This document shows positions 6,215 through 46,257 of a stretch of DNA of 64,000 bases, piece after piece. This DNA comes from Polytrichum commune (taxonomy: Eukaryota; Streptophyta; Polytrichopsida; Polytrichales; Polytrichaceae), in assembly GCA_950295325.1 (NCBI GenBank), contig OX485808.1, forward strand, positions 25,254,527 to 25,318,526. Reading direction: 5' to 3'. A model generated the notes under the pieces. That model had not been told where the DNA came from, did not search any database, and was given only the letters and a program-made list of their open reading frames with translations. A program made the translations under genes and the position numbers. Within the stretch, counting starts at the first letter, position 1. Each line of letters starts with the position of its first letter.

Positions 6215-7790
6215 TGGTTGAGGGCAAAGTATTAAGGTCGGTTGTTAGCAGTTTTGGTCACTCTGCAGCTGCTGCTGATGCATTGGAAGAGGACTTCGGT
6301 ATAGGCTATGTTGCCTGATTCTCCTTTGTTGAGTTTCATTCTTCTTAGTTACGTTTAAGATATCTGAGAAGGCAAACAGTTGGGAGCAGTTTTGATCACT
6401 TTGCCCCTCTCAAGTCACTTGCTTGTGTAATATTGCATTGCAAAGCCCCGTTTGAGAAGGGAGTTGCTGCTGGGTACCAAAATTCTGGAGCTCAGGATGC
6501 AATGTGCATTGGGACAGGACTTCGATGTCTATGTTGCATGATTCTGCTTTCTGAAGTTTCATTCCCTTAGTTACATTGAAGACATCTGAGAAGGCAAAGA
6601 GTTGAGGGCAGTTGTTAGCAGATTTGGTCTATATCACGAGCTTGTGCAGCATCACATTGCAAAGCCCTATCTGAGAAGGGAGTTGTTGCTGGGCACCGAG
6701 CATCTGCAGCTCATTATGCATCGTGCGTTGGGACGGGACGTCGATGTAGGCCATGTTGCCTAATTTTGCTTTAATAAGTCTCACTCCCCTTAGTTACCTT
6801 TTAAGACATCCGAGAGGGCAATAACATCGCATTGTTTATGGCCTCATCTGGAAGGGAGTTACTGCTGGGCACCACAAATCTGCAGCTGATGGTGCATTGT
6901 GCGTTGGAACAGGACTTTAATATCTAGGTTGCATCATTCTGTTTTTTCAAGTATTATTTCGTTAATGATAATTGAGAAGGCAATAACGTCGCATTGTATA
7001 GCCCCATCTCAGAAGGGCATTGCTGCTAGGCACCCAAAATCTGCAGCTGATGATGCATTGTGCATAGGGACAGGACTTTGATGTAGGCTATGTTGCCTGA
7101 TTCTGCTTTTTCAAGTTTCAGTCACTTAGTTGCGTCTAAGATATTTGAGAAGGCAAAGGGTTAAGGGCAGGTGTCAGGAGTTTTGGTTACTCTGTCGCTT
7201 CTAATTCACTCGTTTGTATACCATCTCATTGCAAAGTCCCATTTGCTGGGCACCAAACCTCTACAGCTGATGATGCATTGTGCATTGGGACAGGACTTTG
7301 ATGTCTATGTTGCATGATTCTGCTTTCTCAAGTCTCATTCCCCTTACTTAAGTTTTAGATATCTGAGTAGGCAATGGATTAAGGGCAATTGGTAGCAGTT
7401 GTAGTCACTCACGTGCATAGCCCCATCTGAGAGGAGCTGCTGCTGCTGCTACTACTAGGCACCAGAAATCTACAGCTGATAATGCATTGTGTGTTGGGAC
7501 AGGATTTCGATGTCTGTGTTGCATGATTCTGCTTTCTCAAGTCTCATTCCCCTTAGTTAAGCTTAAGATATCAGAGAAGGCAAAGGATTAAGGGCAAGTG
7601 TTAGCAGATTTGGTCACTCACTTGTATAGCCCCATCTGAGAAGGGACCTGCTGCTGGCCACCAAAAATCTGTAGCTGATGGTGCATTGTGTGTTGGGACA
7701 GGACTTCAATGTCTAAGTTGCATGATTCAGCACCTTCGAGGAACTTGGAGGAACTTCATCGCCCTTAGTTACATCTAATTAAGATATCTG
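6215..7790 (+). repeat. Degenerate tandem array, about eight units of 160-226 bp
   Basis: Each unit carries GCATTGGGACAGGACTT-like sequence, then GTTGCATGATTCTGCTTTCTC, TTAGTTA, ATATCTGAGAAGGCAAA, AGCCCCATCTGAGAAGGG and CAGCTGATGATGCATTGTG. The anchor (cattgg) falls at 6,281, 6,507, 6,726, 6,902, 7,063, 7,283, 7,492 and 7,691. The array ends about 55 bp before the start codon of the next gene. A plausible acceptor (CCTCACAG at 7,831) directly follows it, so it may sit in a 5'-UTR intron; that last point is inference. Confidence 0.85.
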
Positions 7791-7846
7791 AGAAGCAGTC
7801 GTGGAATCAACATCGCCCACACATCCTCACAGGTAGAAAGAGAGAG

Positions 7847-10800
7847 ATGGCAGCAGGAGTGGGGAATGTGCAACTGAGGGTGGCATTGATCGTGAAGAAT
7901 GCGGACCCCTCGGAGTTGTTCCAAATCTTCGTCGTGCGGCAGGACAGACCCAAGAGCAACAGCGGTGGCGAGGAGGAGGGCGATGACGGCGACAGTGAGC
8001 TATGGGAGCTGCCGTCCAGCCCTCTGGGGCGGCTGAGTGGGCGGGCTGACGCGGATGAGCGGCTGAGCAAGGCGGTTAGCAATGTCAAGTTCAATTTTGA
8101 GTGCTTGGGTCTCAATGGCTTCGATATCCACGACGCTGTGGCTCAGGTCACCTCATCGCCCTCTCACATAAAAATAATGTATCAAGAAGCTCTTCTGTTT
8201 GTTTGTTTGTCCACCTCGGACAACCTGATGGTTGGTTGGTTCTGGGAAGTATGAAAAATGGCCATGAAGAGAGAGAGAGAGAGCTTGTCGGAATCGTTCC
8301 TTCCACATGAGATCCATGATGATGCCATTTAAGCATTGTAAGCCCGGTAAAGAGTTCAATTTCTCAAGTCGAAAGCTCAAAGTGTGGACTGAAGTTGGGC
8401 GAGGAAGCTCATTTCTTCAAGCTCTCAACTTCTCTAGTGTATAAGAAGGCCAGGCCAAACTCGAGTTCTTGTCACTCGCTCATTAACAGCAACTTTTATT
8501 GAGGGAGGAGCTTTTTCACCACAACTTTCAGTCAGGTTCTCCAGCTACCAACCCTAACCCTTGAGCTCTAACAGAAAAGGAACAAGTACAATGCAATAGC
8601 AATGGCAATAGGGAGAAGAGTGAACTGATGATGCTCGAATAAATGTGCAGATCCAAGCATGCATATATCCGACAGGTGGTCCCTGCAAATCATGGCGCTA
8701 TTGGAAGTACGTTCAGGAGCCCGCATTTGGCCCTGGCCCTCCTGTCCACACCATTGTGTTCATCACAGAAACCTATACTTATGATGCTTGCTTCTCAGGT
8801 AGAGTCACTCTGACTTCCATGAGCTTGCTGCTCCACAATTTGTCGCTTGTCTAGTTTGTACAATGTGGGTCTGAACGTGCTATTGTCAATTATGGTCTCT
8901 GATTTTGTTAAGTTCATCACAGAAACCTTCACATATGTTGCTTCCTTCTCAGGTAGAGTCAATCTCACCTCCACAACAGTGCAGCTCCACATTTCTTTCT
9001 TGTGTGTTTTGTACAAAGTGGGCGCGAATGTGCTTTTGTCAAATATGGCTCTGAGTTTGTTAAGTTTCTTACAGAAACCTACACATATGATGCTTGCTTC
9101 TCAGGTAGAGTCAATGTGACTTCCACAAACTTGCAATTTCACGTTTCTTGCTTGTCTACTTTGTACAATGTGGGCCCGAACGTGCTACTATAAATAATGG
9201 TCTCTGAGTTTCTTAAGCTTCTTGAGTAATTTGGAGGATTACTATGAAGATTTCCATGTAGGTGTAGAGTGACGTATCAAATGACGAGTATGCAGTCACT
9301 GATTTCTTGTATCTCCTATGGATTTGGTAATGCCTGGTAGATGTGGTCACCATGGTCACAGAATCTCAACCTGACACAGTGATCTCAGAGATAAAAAGAT
9401 GAATGTGTGGCTAGGTTCTGATTTGAGATGCGTGATGCAGGAAACGGGCATTGGGTGGACCCACATGAAGCATATAACAGACTAGTGGATGCAGATTTGA
9501 AGAAGGAGCGAATTGGCCCCCTGGCCATGTTTGCCTTTTCCTCTCACTTCCCTGCAGGGTTGTCTTTCAAGTATAACCTCAGTGTACATGGGCAGGTAAT
9601 AAGAATTGTTCCAGTGTAGGCAATATACACTTATTATACTCAGTGTTTTGACATCAGAGTAAATGTGGCAGTATTGAAGATGTAATTTTGTAAATCATAG
9701 TAGTCTCATTACTATGATGATAGTTGATAAGCATGATATCTGCTGCTACAGGAGTATCCTCCAGGCATATTTGTTGCTCCCATGGATTCTATGGCAGGGA
9801 AGCCTTTCAGCAAGACCAATATGGTTGTCTTTGCACCAACAGCTCCTTTAACACATACAATCGACACCAGTGTGGCCGTAGCATGCGGTGATGCGTTGAT
9901 CTGCGACCCTGGGTGCTATCCTGTTGCTGCACATGCTCAGGTTTGTATTGGTCAGGCGAAGAGATTATCAGGACTTGTCTATTCCTGATTGGATACAAGG
10001 AGGCCCATTATCACCCATAATGGATGATCTTGCCATCGCATGACCACTACTTCCAGTAATGGACATGTGTTGGCCTACTACTGGTTGTAGTATCCACCTG
10101 TACCTCCCTCCCCACTAACCCAGCTGGGTAGGTTGGGTGCCTACTACAGGCCGTAACATGGCTCTCGCATCCATTACCTAGTTTGTAGTGGTCAGATCAA
10201 GAGATTATGCAGACTTGTCTATTCTTGATTGAATACGAGGAGGCGCATTATCACCTGTAATCGATGACCTTGCCATGGCCTGACCACTACGTCCGGCAAT
10301 GGACGCATGTCACCCTGGCATCAGCTGTATTAGGCCACTCAGTATCTACCTCGCTGCTACTTGGGTGCCTACTACATGCCGTGACCGGGTTCTCGTATCT
10401 TTATCTAGTTTGTAAATTCTCTTCAACAACATGTACATGAAGACAAAAAGATGTGAGTTTGAGTTGCAGTTTACAAAGAGAAGAATGAGTAAAAATAGGC
10501 AATTATGGTATCTGAACTTCTGCAATTTGGTGACGAGCAGCTTGCAAAGGTTGTGAACGAGCTGCCAAAAAAGCTTCTGGTCTTTGTCACACATCACCAT
10601 ATGGATCATGTTGATGGTGAGCTTCCTCTTGTCCAAGTCTATTATTATGGTTACCCATTTTCACCAAAGGACATTATTCTCTTTCCAACAGAAATGTGCA
10701 TCCCTTATGTCACTTGGAGGTTTTCAGTCTACTTGGAGTTCGTGAAGAGCATAAGTTGAATGCTTACAGAATTGCTTGTCAAAACCTCTTGTAATGACAT

Positions 10801-13800
10801 GGGTACGTTGAGTCTCAGTTTCAGAAACTTTCATTTTCATTTTTAGTATGGGGACTTTATCATCTGCAATGTGGTAATACACGCAGGTTTGCCGACTGTG
10901 AGGCAGAACAATTCACAGGCCATCATCATTGCGCACAAGAAGACAATCGAGCGCATGTGTAAAGGTAATTTCATTTACCAAGTATTTACCTAAGGGACTG
11001 GAATTGAGTTGACAAATTAATCTGAGAGCCATTTCTATCCTTAAAGAAGCTTCCTTTAGCTTTTGTTGAGACTCGGACTTTTTTCATCTAAACGTGGGCT
11101 GAGTAGACAATTAACATGGTACTTGATCAAGTAAAATGTTGAGAAGGCAAGATCATCATTTAAGGATTGTTGTCATTGCCGTTCTAGCTCAACAATTTTA
11201 ACTTGGTCAAAATATGACTACTTTGCATATCTTTACATCATGATTAGCATATGGAATTTCAACATGAGAGTTCTGAAGTACTTTTAAATTCTGAATTCTG
11301 AATCCTGATTTCTGAATTTCAACATGACTTTGATAGGATTCAAAGGTGCATACATTGTACACAATCATAGTTGCTCTGATATCAGAACTTTGTATAAAAT
11401 GAGCTGAAAATTTCCGGGTTCTGCTCTAAATGTTATCAGTGTGTGAAATCTGATTGTGTTGGGGTAAAGTATTTCATATGAAGCATGCAGTGGCCTATAT
11501 AAGGTTTTTGATATTAAATGAAATATTCACACAAGACATCAATAAAGAGGTACAGTCGAGATGTTTTTTGACTTTCAGATATTTGTCTCTTTTGCTAACT
11601 GTAAATGTTTGAGGACCAGCAGCCACTGCTGGGTTGCAGTGCATTGCAGTTGAGGGAAACTCAAAATTGCTGATTTCTGGCCAGGAACTTGAAGTTGTTT
11701 CCGCTCCAGTATGTTCTCCTCCATCACTTGTTCCTTGGAACAGTTGTGTAAATTCTCTTCTGTTTGCAAATGGATTTATAAATATCTGTTGGAAATTATG
11801 TCGTCTTCCACCCAAAAAAACCCGTGATGGAGAATCAAAACTGCTTTTATTGCAAAGTGCAGGGTCACACAGATGGGCATCTAGGGTTACTTCATCGTGC
11901 CACAGGCACACTCCTAGTTGGTGATCATTGTGTTGGGTGAGCTCAATCTTCTGTTACACCATATAGACATGTCAGCTTATATTGACTACAAATACTTCTG
12001 ATTTATATTGTCAAACATCACACCTAGTGTTTTATAGTGTAATGTGCCTATAATATATGTATTAATCTTATGTAACAATCTCATCGTTTTAGTATAATGT
12101 GACACACAGAATGAAAGAGAGTAAGAAAGTAATGTAATTATTATGACATCAATTAAAATTGATGATTCTATTTCTACATTTTGCTACTTTGAAATGATAA
12201 TTTTGCCTCTGGAAGTTTGTGATGTGAGTGTTTTTCTGTGGTTGGGTGCAGAGAAGGGTCTTCTTTGTTAGATTCCACTTCAGGAGGCAACATGGAGGTT
12301 TGTTTTAATAAGATCCATCAAAAACTTTTCATAATATATTTCATCTATTGTTGCATTTAAAATTTGTCAATATCCTCTCAAAACTGAGATTGTACACTTA
12401 TAATCAAATAGTATATTTCAAGCCTTTGACAATTCTGTAGTGAAATGGACTTGGTCTGATAAGAAATTCGAATTGTCTGGTGACCCCTTCATGTCTTTTT
12501 GGTATTGTTCCACTAGAACTGTACCCAGGCCACCAAAGTGTACTGAACTGCTGCGTGATGCAGGACTACTTGGAAACATGCGATCGATTTTTGGAACTTG
12601 CACCAAAAGTCATTGTGCCGGCGCATGGACACCCCAATCTATGGCCAAAGCATATGCTTAAAGGATATATCAGGTAAACTGTCTTTACCATTTAATGATC
12701 TCATGAGATTTAGACATTAAAAACCTCACCCTCAAATTTATTGGGTGGATGAATTCCCATTGGGATTATTTCGCTTAGGGACCATTTTACACTTTGACCA
12801 TGAAATTGTGAGGGCCCATGACTCTCATTGGAAGTTTGTACCATGGAGCATTGAAATTGAATTTTGTGTGGTCATGGGCCTTCATTGTATTGTAAAAGGC
12901 TGAGTGACCAGGGTCTCAACCAGATGCTATCTCATTACCATCCTATATATGTGGGTCCTTCTACACATGACGCTATAACAAATCAAGGGTTGTGAAACTT
13001 TGAGGTGGGCTTGACTTGAAATCCGGTAGATCATGAAACGTTGTCCATTACATGATACTGTGTAGGACATATGTAGGTTTGTTCGTCCATTTAAACTTCC
13101 TTGGTCACTTAGGGCCTCAAGCTCTAGTTTAAAGTGAAGTGGGGACAGTCTTGGCATTTTTTACCAATTGAGAGATTCTAGACTTCAATGGTCACAGGCC
13201 CTCAAGCTCTAGTACAAAGTGCCCCTTAGCTCAACTTGTGTTTTAGCTGAAGTAACAGTAAATACATCAAACCCTTGAGTATGCTCAAAAATATCAAAAT
13301 AATTTTGTATCTCCAGAAATAATTGTAACAACGACATTGCCATTTTTTGTGCTTTTACTGATTAATCATAAGGAGGCTCTTTGCTTTTCTTTTCTTTTCT
13401 GCAGGCACAGGGAAGGAAGGGAGGCAAAAATTCTGAGTGCAATACAGGGAGGGGCAAGGACAGCTTATGAGGTGGTTTCCCGAGCATACAATGATGCACC
13501 TTCTGCCGTATGGCCATTCGCATTGATGAATGCGAAGTTGCACATCGAGCATTTGAATGCACTGAACAAACTTCCCCTTGTAAGGCTCATTGCCCTCTGC
13601 CGAGATACTAATAGTTTTTAAATTTAAGATGCAGGATTCCGTGAAAATGAAATATACCTCTTAAAGTAAGGTAAGCTGGCCTCAAACAGACATTTTTCAC
13701 CTGCACCCACTTCTTGTAGGATATGAAACACTAAATTAGTGCAAGACGATTAGCAAATCCAAATTGTGACTGTAGCCATTTCTTCATACTATTTGGAGCT

Positions 13801-14722
13801 CATATGGATATCTTATAGGTATAGTATAGGTGCCCGAACTATGTTGACTATTGAACCTAGAATGGTTAACAAATTTTAAGTACATAGTCCAATCTGTTCT
13901 ATTTGATCCATTCTTAGATGCAAACCTAAGCATACACCACACAAATATAGTTGTCTGTTTAAGATTAGTAACCGAATTAGGCCTTACCTCAAGCAGGCTT
14001 AATTGTGCTTACCTATCGTAATCAGACACCTATATTTGAGTAGTGGTGCGTAGTTAGGTGTGGAACTAAGAACAGACACCCAAGAGACTCATGTTTGAAA
14101 GAGATTAGACTATATGCTCGAAATTTTCTAAGTATTCTAGGTTCAATTGATAAGATAATTGGGGGAGACCTACATGATTATTTGCGAAGAGAATCTTGAC
14201 TTCTATAGTGAACTAGATACTCATAGGACCTCCAAAAATTATGAGGAAAGTGGCTACAACCTTGATTTGGATTTGTCAATCATCTCATACTAGGTAATTG
14301 CGCAGTTAATATCCTAGAAGAAGTGGGTGCAGAGCTTAAAGTGTCCGTTTTAGGCCCACTTACCTTAGAATTGTGCGCAGAATCTATTTTACTTGTATGT
14401 ACCTACAAAATTTCTGAATTCTTTTACATCCTATCGCCTACAAGGCATCATATTCTGCACGTTAAACCACTATTACGCCAATTTTTTTTGTCGCTGCTAT
14501 TTAAGTGGGACTCACAATTCTCAAATTTCTTGCCAGGATTTTGACATGGATACATTTGAGCGAAGCACCAAAGCTCCCTTCCTGTTGAGATGCTTTCCAG
14601 CTGCTGCGCGTTTGGCATTGCGGAGACCGTTTATGTCCATGGCACATTCTCCACTTGCAGGAAGCTTGTCAGTAATTGTTATTCTGGGTGCGGTTGCCTG
14701 CTTGTGGACAAAAAAAAAATGA
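7847..14722 (+). CDS. LACTB2-type metallo-beta-lactamase fold protein, membrane-anchored (12 exons, 540 aa)
   Basis: Probable metal-dependent hydrolase or nuclease of the plant family that includes Arabidopsis At4g33540, related to LACTB2. Exons: 7847-8146, 8651-8798, 9441-9595, 9752-9940, 10541-10616, 10887-10964, 11623-11708, 11863-11936, 12252-12297, 12564-12673, 13405-13579, 14537-14722. All junctions are GT-AG and in phase; they sum to 1,623 nt. The N-terminal about 200 residues are the plant-specific extension ([17 protein letters not shown]). The metal site is complete: HHHMDH at 282-287 (ligands His282, His284, Asp286, His287), GHTDGH with His346, GDH with Asp365, and PAHG with His405. 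A hydrophobic segment at about 517-536 followed by WTKKK suggests a C-terminal membrane anchor. Length fits the family (about 520). The start ATG follows a likely 5'-UTR acceptor and opens the conserved N-terminus. Substrate is unknown. Confidence 0.93.
8759..9217 (+). repeat. Three tandem 152-154 bp copies spanning the exon 2 donor
   Basis: Units begin near 8,759, 8,913 and 9,065. Each contains the last codons of exon 2, the donor (TTCTCAG|GTAGAG) and intron sequence through CTTTGTACAATGTGGG. Copies 2 and 3 each keep an acceptor-like CACAG or TACAG exactly 30 nt before the copied donor (8,923-8,952 and 9,075-9,104). These 30-nt segments are open and phase 1-1, so either could be spliced in without breaking the frame. 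Confidence 0.9.
9941..10407 (+). repeat. Tandem duplication (period 240 bp) starting at the exon 4 donor
   Basis: Unit 1 starts at the donor (CAG|GTTTGTATTGGTCAGGCG) and unit 2 at 10,181 (GTTTGTAGTGGTCAGATC). Shared blocks include GACTTGTCTATTC, GCATTATCACC and GGGTGCCTACTACA. Unit 2 is somewhat shorter. All of it lies in intron 4 of the metallo-beta-lactamase gene. Confidence 0.85.
12774..13229. mobile_element. E-family-related MITE in intron 10
   Basis: The element begins CTTAGGGACCATTTTACACT and ends AGTACAAAGTGCCCCTTAG, giving imperfect terminal inverted repeats. Inner blocks (GAAATTGTGAGGGCCC, GTCTCAACCAGATGCTA, GTGGGTCCT) match E-family elements at 3.6 and 49 kb, but the copy is much diverged. 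It is non-coding. Confidence 0.6.
13667..13993 (+). mobile_element. A-family MITE in intron 11, direct copy
   Basis: It begins TAAGGTAAGCTGGCCT and runs through the A-family core (CACCCACTTCTTGTAGGATATG, TTGACTATTGAACCTAGAATGG, CATAGTCCAATCT) to GAATTAGGCCTTACCT. It directly abuts an inverted copy, so the two could form a long hairpin in the pre-mRNA. Confidence 0.8.
13994..14368 (-). mobile_element. A-family MITE in intron 11, inverted copy
   Basis: Full-length copy in the opposite orientation to its left neighbour, with blocks ACACCTATATTTGAGTAGTG, TATGAGGAAAGTGGCTACA and AGAAGTGGGTGCAGAGCTTA. It ends TAGGCCCACTTACCTTAG. The right end lies 168 bp before exon 12. Confidence 0.85.
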
Positions 14723-18074: not shown

Positions 18075-18412
18075 GGAACCTAGCCCACTTCTCCTAGGAT
18101 ATGTAACATACAATTAGCACAAGATGATGAGCAAATCCAAATCGAGACTAGAGCCACTTTCCTCATAACCTCAAAGCTCACATGGATAGTTTAATCATTA
18201 CTAAAGTGACGATTCTCGTGCTCATTAAATGGTCACGTAGGTCTCTCCAATTACGCTGATTATTGAACCTAGAATGATTATCATATTTAGTCCGATCTCT
18301 CTTTAAGCATATATCTCTTTGGCATTTGTTCTTGGAGCCACACCCAACCATATACCAACTCAAATATAGGTGTCCAATTAAAGACAAGTAACCGAATTAG
18401 GCACGTCTTCCT
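18075..18412 (+). mobile_element. A-family MITE copy
   Basis: Core blocks are GATGAGCAAATCCAAATCGAG, AAAGTGACGATTCTCGTGCT, GATTATTGAACCTAGAATG, CAACTCAAATATAGGTGTCC and AGTAACCGAATTAGGCACG. The 5' terminus is worn. Confidence 0.7.

Positions 18413-26671: not shown

Positions 26672-46257
<19,586 letters not shown>

What the first reader, a model, noticed from the sequence alone, without database searches (positions are those of the whole stretch)
8759..9217. Tandem triplication creates two candidate 30-nt in-frame microexons
Seen: three 152-154 bp copies span the exon 2 end and donor of the metallo-beta-lactamase gene. Copies 2 and 3 each keep CAG|AA...TTCTCAG|GTAGAG with exactly 30 nt between (8,923-8,952; 9,075-9,104). 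Both are open, phase 1-1, and would add [10 protein letters not shown] and [10 protein letters not shown] in series after the native [10 protein letters not shown]. The acceptor of copy 3 (TTTCTTACAG) looks strong. Inference: this may be a new alternative-splicing cassette caught early, adding 0, 10 or 20 residues just ahead of the conserved region.
Basis: partly seen in the sequence, partly recalled or inferred. Interest (0 to 1): 0.72.

Follow-up and report, generated by a model that had tools for sequence, protein, structure and literature searches.

The report
Tripled exon end with microexon candidates
In what looks like a plant enzyme gene, the end of one exon and the start of the next intron were copied three times in a row, leaving two short exon-like pieces that could add 10 or 20 amino acids if the cell splices them in, which only RNA data can show.

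Summary
Three copies (8757-8911, 8912-9063, 9064-9216; 80-84% alike) carry the end of exon 2 and its donor into intron 2 of an intact, modelled 12-exon, 531-aa metallo-beta-lactamase-fold gene. Copies 2 and 3 each keep CAG|30 nt|GTAGAG, open, phase 1-1; +10 and +20 residue products stay in frame. "Caught early" fails: copies differ by 0.24-0.28 per intronic site. Whether the pieces are used is an even bet: inert decoys 0.42, some inclusion of copy 3 0.40. For inclusion: copy 3's acceptor scores like the native one, its 30 nt carry no change of their own while three fall in its acceptor tract (scatter 9e-5, post hoc; rotation 8 of 153). Against: copy 2 has three amino-acid changes and a weak acceptor; two would-be introns are shorter than any of the gene's 11. 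A third reading: TTCTCAG|GTAGAG in each copy could act as a zero-length exon, leaving the native mRNA. No RNA and no relative was available. The nearest precedent read is a potato gene (PMC4974935), duplicated on the acceptor side; here it is the donor side.

The parts
7847..14722 (+). host gene: modelled 12-exon metallo-beta-lactamase-fold protein, 531 aa, intact
   Evidence: spliced model in frame with one terminal stop; Pfam Lactamase_B E 3.1e-9; PDB 4ad9 (beta-lactamase-like protein 2) E 1.2e-13
8651..8798 (+). native exon 2; its last 42 bases belong to copy 1
8757..8911 (+). repeat copy 1 (exon 2 end, donor, 113 bases of intron 2)
8912..9063 (+). repeat copy 2
9064..9216 (+). repeat copy 3
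8923..8952 (+). candidate microexon of copy 2 ([10 protein letters not shown]); acceptor 1.47 bits
9075..9104 (+). candidate microexon of copy 3 ([10 protein letters not shown]); acceptor 3.96 bits; no change of its own in 30 nt
8799..8922 (+). would-be intron of 124 nt if the copy 2 acceptor is used
8953..9074 (+). would-be intron of 122 nt between the two candidates
9105..9440 (+). would-be intron of 336 nt to native exon 3
8946..8958 (+). TTCTCAG|GTAGAG of copy 2: possible zero-length-exon (recursive) site, acceptor 4.48 bits
9098..9110 (+). TTCTCAG|GTAGAG of copy 3: the same, 3.49 bits
9441..9595 (+). native exon 3 (acceptor GATGCAG|GA, 3.72 bits)

Best explanation
An old intragenic tandem triplication copied the last 42 bases of exon 2, with its donor and about 113 bases of intron, twice into intron 2 (shown by the sequence). 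Each extra copy thereby inherited a native-quality donor, and a CAG that was only coding sequence in exon 2 now has a branch-site-like motif and some T-rich sequence in front of it, so that it looks like an acceptor (shown as sequence only). I infer, by a narrow margin over partial inclusion of copy 3, that the spliceosome joins 8798 to 9441 and passes over these pieces, which are inherited decoys decaying slowly; copy 2 in particular shows no sign of constraint.
For: The triplication itself. Random placement of copy 3's 15 substitutions leaves AG, GT and an open frame in 56% of trials, so intactness needs no selection. Copy 2's three exon changes are all non-synonymous, and its exon is no more spared than the repeat at large (77 of 153 rotations). 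Copies 2 and 3 differ at 3 of 30 exon sites against 24 of 102 intronic sites, p 0.13; a conserved 39-column block this good somewhere in the repeat has P 0.16. Two would-be introns (124 and 122 nt) are shorter than all 11 native introns of the model (154-957 nt). The candidates lack the GCAG of 9 of the 11 native acceptors. Very short exons are spliced less efficiently, and skipping of microexons is said to be less common in plants than in animals (passages of PMC8831610). Tandem duplications also lie in intron 4 and upstream of the gene, so local duplication is common here.
Against: The donor GTAGAGTCA is kept 9 of 9 in both extra copies. With the donor included, copies 2 and 3 differ at 3 of 39 sites against 24 of 102, p 0.033. 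Copy 3's acceptor is strengthened by 2.5 bits while its exon has 0 of 30 own changes (scatter 9e-5, post hoc; rotation 8 of 153), and it ranks 2nd of 35 AG examined by either matrix. One native acceptor of the gene (9751) also ends in CTACAG.
Confidence: 0.42

Rival explanations
1. Partial inclusion of copy 3. Most mRNA joins 8798 to 9441, but a fraction includes 9075-9104 and so gains ten residues ([10 protein letters not shown]); copy 2 is used little or not at all. Almost as likely in my judgement as the decoy reading.
For: Frame, phase and intact host gene. Donors 8953 and 9105 equal native donor 8799 and share first place among 55 GT examined in intron 2. The copy 3 acceptor ranks 2nd of 35 AG examined, just above native 9440 (3.96 against 3.72 bits) with the recalled matrix, and 2nd below native with the gene-weighted one. 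CTGAT lies 20 nt before the copy 2 acceptor, CTGAG 20 nt before that of copy 3, CTGAT 19 nt before the native one. Copy 3: 0 of 30 own exon changes, 3 of 11 in the acceptor tract, all leaving T or C. Exon plus donor 3 of 39 against 24 of 102, p 0.033. The model has a native 46-nt exon. The native acceptor also has a nearer AG, 13 nt upstream, that is passed over in the model.
Against: No RNA, no relatives. The scatter test was framed after seeing the pattern; rotation gives 8 of 153, and 16 of 153 for the exon alone. Would-be introns of 124 and 122 nt are shorter than any native one. AAG 10 nt upstream (and a further AG 19 nt upstream in copy 3) and TTCTCAG 30 nt downstream compete.
Confidence: 0.4
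2. Zero-length exons. Each TTCTCAG|GTAGAG works first as acceptor and then as regenerated donor, so the intron is removed in two or three steps and the mRNA is the native one.
For: TTCTCAG of copy 2 ranks 1st and that of copy 3 4th of 35 AG examined (4.48 and 3.49 bits). Joining exon 2 to it recreates the exact native donor. The pieces would be 154, 152 and 336 nt; the shortest native intron of the model is 154.
Against: With the gene-weighted matrix these sites fall to 6th and 10th of 35. The intron is only 642 nt, far from the long animal introns in which the process is best known (recalled; abstracts in the listing only).
Confidence: 0.13
3. Assembly artefact: repeated reads joined wrongly.
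For: Tandem copies are a known source of assembly error (general knowledge).
Against: Copies differ at about 20-24% of intronic sites and by small indels, far beyond read error, so an expanded single copy does not explain them.
Confidence: 0.03

Closest known systems
Intron gain by tandem duplication across an intron-exon boundary, potato RdRp gene (PMC4974935; abstract and results section read)
   Same: A plant gene; an intragenic tandem duplication crosses an exon-intron boundary, most splice signals are inherited, and one missing site is recruited from previously coding sequence. That gene also holds a further intronic tandem duplication (83 bp) that did not change its structure.
   Different: There the acceptor side was duplicated and a cryptic donor recruited, with 106 RNA-Seq reads across the new junction. 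Here the donor side was duplicated and a cryptic exonic AG would be the acceptor; three copies, 30-nt pieces, no RNA.
AGGT tandem-duplication model (Rogers; Hellsten et al.), as described in PMC4974935
   Same: Each copy holds AG|GT at the same place, so splicing between copies there would leave the mRNA unchanged.
   Different: The AGGT here is a native exon-intron junction, not an exonic segment.
Plant microexons (PMC8831610, passages; PMC10808074, abstract)
   Same: Size under 51 nt, in frame, in a plant-like gene whose model has a native 46-nt exon.
   Different: Those described are supported by RNA data; these are local duplicates with no RNA support.
Tandem exon duplication with alternative splicing (animal examples in the listing)
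   Same: A duplicated coding piece inside an intron, candidate for alternative use.
   Different: Only the exon's 3' end is duplicated, so the acceptor is not inherited from a real acceptor, and copies could be used in series rather than as alternatives.

Membership tests
Intron/exon gain by tandem genomic duplication | Tandem copies spanning an exon-intron boundary | tested here: met
   boundary from the gene model
Intron/exon gain by tandem genomic duplication | New splice junctions used in mRNA | not testable with these tools
   no RNA data on hand
Intron/exon gain by tandem genomic duplication | Absence in relatives showing a gain | not testable with these tools
   no plant collection held; one scan each of genome contigs and viral contigs confirmed no relative
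Plant microexon (under 51 nt) | Length, AG and GT bounds, frame kept | tested here: met
   30 nt each, phase 1-1
Plant microexon (under 51 nt) | Selection on the coding piece | tested here: inconclusive
   copy 3: 0 of 30 own changes, rotation 16 of 153; copy 2: 3 of 3 changes non-synonymous, rotation 77 of 153
Plant microexon (under 51 nt) | Inclusion in RNA | not testable with these tools
   none available
Recursive splice site | Acceptor immediately followed by donor | tested here: met
   TTCTCAG|GTAGAG at 8952/8953 and 9104/9105, as sequence
Recursive splice site | Stepwise lariats | not testable with these tools
   none available
Metallo-beta-lactamase superfamily | Profile match and metal-binding motif | tested here: met
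   Lactamase_B 37.5 bits over cut-off 22.7; [10 protein letters not shown] in the model (motif recalled)

The most novel reading that the evidence does not exclude
A boundary-crossing triplication on the donor side made a working plant microexon whose acceptor was converted from coding sequence: the CAG inside exon 2 became a 3' splice site in copy 3, then gained a better pyrimidine tract by three substitutions while the 30-nt coding piece was held unchanged, giving a metered insertion of 0, 10 or 20 residues.
Probability: 0.2. Interest if true: 0.6.

Novelty: new variant of a known kind. Interest (0 to 1): 0.33.

Why it matters
Few recently gained introns are proven (so PMC4974935, abstract). 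If copy 3 is spliced, this would show how duplication of an exon's 3' edge can supply a complete new exon, with its acceptor made from coding sequence, and copy 2 beside it would serve as an internal comparison. If it is not spliced, the locus is a natural test of why strong-looking sites are ignored.

Tried and rejected
Whole-genome search of the window's own assembly: none held. Relatives: the search for related loci with 143 residues spanning exons 2-4 in genome contigs (274 pattern stretches, none confirmed) and with exon 4 alone in viral contigs (40 stretches, none confirmed); these are not plant collections, so the misses say nothing about age. RNA gene in the repeat: Rfam on the whole window gave 0 matches at gathering score. 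Read-through of exon 2 to the donors of copies 2 or 3: rejected, in-frame stops soon after the native donor. A fourth, decayed copy in 9217-9445: best match 26 bases at 69%, E 0.18, not accepted. N-terminal 201 residues: no Pfam family at max E 10 and one PDB hit at E 0.32, taken as chance, so the structural place of the insertion is unknown. I did not send the spliced protein to structure prediction, because it is not a contiguous translation of the window as that tool requires. The first gene models were partial or had wrong exon 7 and exon 10 acceptors; the model with all exons had internal stops and was corrected by reading the frame. Paper searches; some searches listed only 10 of 71, 10 of 25 and 12 of 21 papers found. 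I saw no donor-side case in those listings, which is not proof that none is in print. The 45-column count (copy 3: 1 of 153) used a length read off the data and is not used as evidence.

Full report
Observation. The window holds no N. Intron 2 of a metallo-beta-lactamase-fold gene begins inside a three-copy tandem repeat. The gene can be modelled as 12 exons from 7847 to 14722 with consistent phases, giving 531 residues and one terminal stop. Pfam finds Lactamase_B at 245-308, E 3.1e-9, and the best solved relative is 4ad9, beta-lactamase-like protein 2, E 1.2e-13, over residues 278-475. The first 201 residues match no Pfam family and no PDB chain beyond chance.

The repeat. The copies are 8757-8911, 8912-9063 and 9064-9216. 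TRF reports period 152, 3.0 copies, 80% matches; self-BLAST gives 80.3% and 83.8%. Copy 1 holds the last 42 bases of exon 2 and 113 bases of intron 2. Copies 2 and 3 repeat the same content inside the intron. The 30-nt pieces, 8923-8952 and 9075-9104, lie between CAG and GTAGAG, are open and are phase 1-1; including either gives 541 residues and both 551, with no internal stop.

Age. In the intronic part (columns 52-155) the pairs differ at 23 of 102, 21 of 103 and 24 of 102 sites, Jukes-Cantor 0.268, 0.238 and 0.282. The three pairs are nearly equidistant, which suggests copies made close together in time. With recalled plant neutral rates of 5 to 7e-9 per site per year this is roughly 17 to 28 million years. 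The phrase "caught early" therefore does not hold.

Splice signals. The donors are identical in all three copies over GTAGAGTCA, score 3.26 bits and share the top of 55 GT examined in intron 2, the native one among them. Pairing with the U1 5' end, through a one-base bulge, gives -8.4 kcal/mol in all three, against -2.9 to -9.5 for the other ten native donors (U1 sequence recalled). Acceptors were scored with a recalled, approximate Arabidopsis matrix and with the same matrix weighted to this gene's own introns. Of 35 AG examined (about 8821 to 9440, native included), the first matrix ranks 8952 (4.48), 9074 (3.96), native 9440 (3.72), 9104 (3.49), 9261 (2.79) and 8922 (1.47). The second ranks native 9440 first, 9074 second, 8922 fourth, 8952 sixth and 9104 tenth. 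Of 297 AG inside the gene's 11 introns, native acceptors left out and candidates kept in, 3 score above the copy 3 acceptor, 25 above that of copy 2, and 5 above native 9440. Nine of the 11 native acceptors end in GCAG, unlike the candidates; one, 9751, ends in CTACAG. A CTGAT lies 20 nt before the copy 2 acceptor and 19 nt before the native one; copy 3 has CTGAG at 20. Both candidates have an AAG 10 nt upstream, whose use would add 40 nt and shift the frame, and copy 3 has a further AG at 19; but the native acceptor too has an AG 13 nt upstream that is passed over in the model. The would-be introns of 124 and 122 nt are shorter than all 11 native ones (154 to 957 nt).

A further rival. In each copy the end of the 30-nt piece reads TTCTCAG|GTAGAG. 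It is a fair acceptor followed at once by the native donor. Splicing exon 2 to it would recreate exon 2's own end and donor, so the intron could be removed in steps and the mRNA would not change. This competes directly with inclusion of the 30 nt. The AGGT duplication model (as described in PMC4974935, results section) rests on the same geometry.

Is either piece under selection? Intact sites alone say little: random placement of copy 3's 15 substitutions keeps AG, GT and an open frame in 56% of trials (indels ignored; the 15 include two columns where all three copies differ and copy 1 was taken as ancestor). Copy 2 has three changes of its own in the 30 nt, all non-synonymous (Y to F, D to V, C to S); copy 1 has two, both synonymous, as expected for the native exon; copy 3 has none. 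Copies 2 and 3 differ at 3 of 30 exon sites against 24 of 102 intronic sites (p 0.13), and with the donor included at 3 of 39 (p 0.033). Copy 3's own changes in the exon (0 of 30) against the intron (10 of 102) give a one-sided p of 0.068. Copy 3 has three changes in the 11 bases up to its acceptor; all leave T or C and the score rises from 1.47 to 3.96. Scattering its substitutions at random gives no exon change in 3.2%, such an acceptor in 0.7% and both in 0.009% of 200,000 trials. That test was framed after seeing the pattern. Rotating the observed substitutions around the repeat, which keeps their clustering, gives no exon change in 16 of 153 rotations and both features in 8 of 153; for copy 2, 77 of 153 rotations have as few exon changes. 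A shuffle of conserved columns gives 0.008 for this fixed 39-column window and 0.16 for any such window. The case for copy 3 is suggestive, not firm; for copy 2 there is none.

Verdict on mechanism. Inert decoys (0.42) and inclusion of copy 3 in a fraction of transcripts (0.40) are about equally likely, with stepwise removal at AG|GT at 0.13. I put the decoy reading first because it is simpler and marginally likelier. The bold reading, a selected microexon in copy 3 with an acceptor converted from coding sequence, stays open at 0.2.

Known kind. [quoted passage not shown] The present locus is the mirror image: the donor is inherited and the acceptor would be recruited from exon sequence. PMC8831610 (passages) says that microexons are spliced less efficiently, lean on signals in flanking introns, and in plants show intron retention more commonly than the skipping seen in animals; PMC10808074 (abstract) uses under 51 nt as the size limit and describes a plant regulator. 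Passages of PMC8469720 on stwintrons show a related stepwise-removal geometry in fungi. Seven paper searches, three of them with only part of the papers listed, showed no donor-side case; that is no proof of absence.

Limits. No RNA, no relative and no plant genome was available. The matrices are approximate and recalled. The gene model rests on reading frames and splice consensus, not on RNA. The place of the insertion in the folded protein is unknown.

Noticed in passing
9941-10414: Intron 4 of the same gene also begins with a tandem duplication (124-nt core 84% alike, spacing 240) whose first copy starts exactly at the exon 4 donor. The second copy keeps GTTTGT but with CCTA before it instead of CTCAG. 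Thus two of the 11 introns have a duplication at their donor; whether that is more than chance was not tested.
   Followed up: partly
6262-7795: Complex array of about 210-220 bp repeats (TRF periods 219 and 209; BLAST 65-71% alike) just upstream of the start codon at 7847.
   Followed up: no
13666-14367: Intron 11 holds an inverted pair (13667-13813 and 14215-14367, 74.5% alike), and parts of 13667-13991 recur near 18084, 26854, 35710, 40297, 45003, 52683 and 59144 on both strands: possibly a dispersed element with long terminal inverted repeats.
   Followed up: no
38252-44799: Exon-like ORFs of an ABC transporter: ABC_membrane at 38252-38581 (E 2.2e-8) and a weak ABC_tran at 44470-44799 (E 0.031, below cut-off); 2 of the 6 window ORFs scanned.
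   Followed up: partly
30303-30630: Another tandem duplication, period 139 (87% and 76% matches in two overlapping TRF rows).
   Followed up: no
12252-12297: Exon 9 of the modelled metallo-beta-lactamase gene is only 46 nt, so the gene would already rely on one microexon-sized exon.
   Followed up: no
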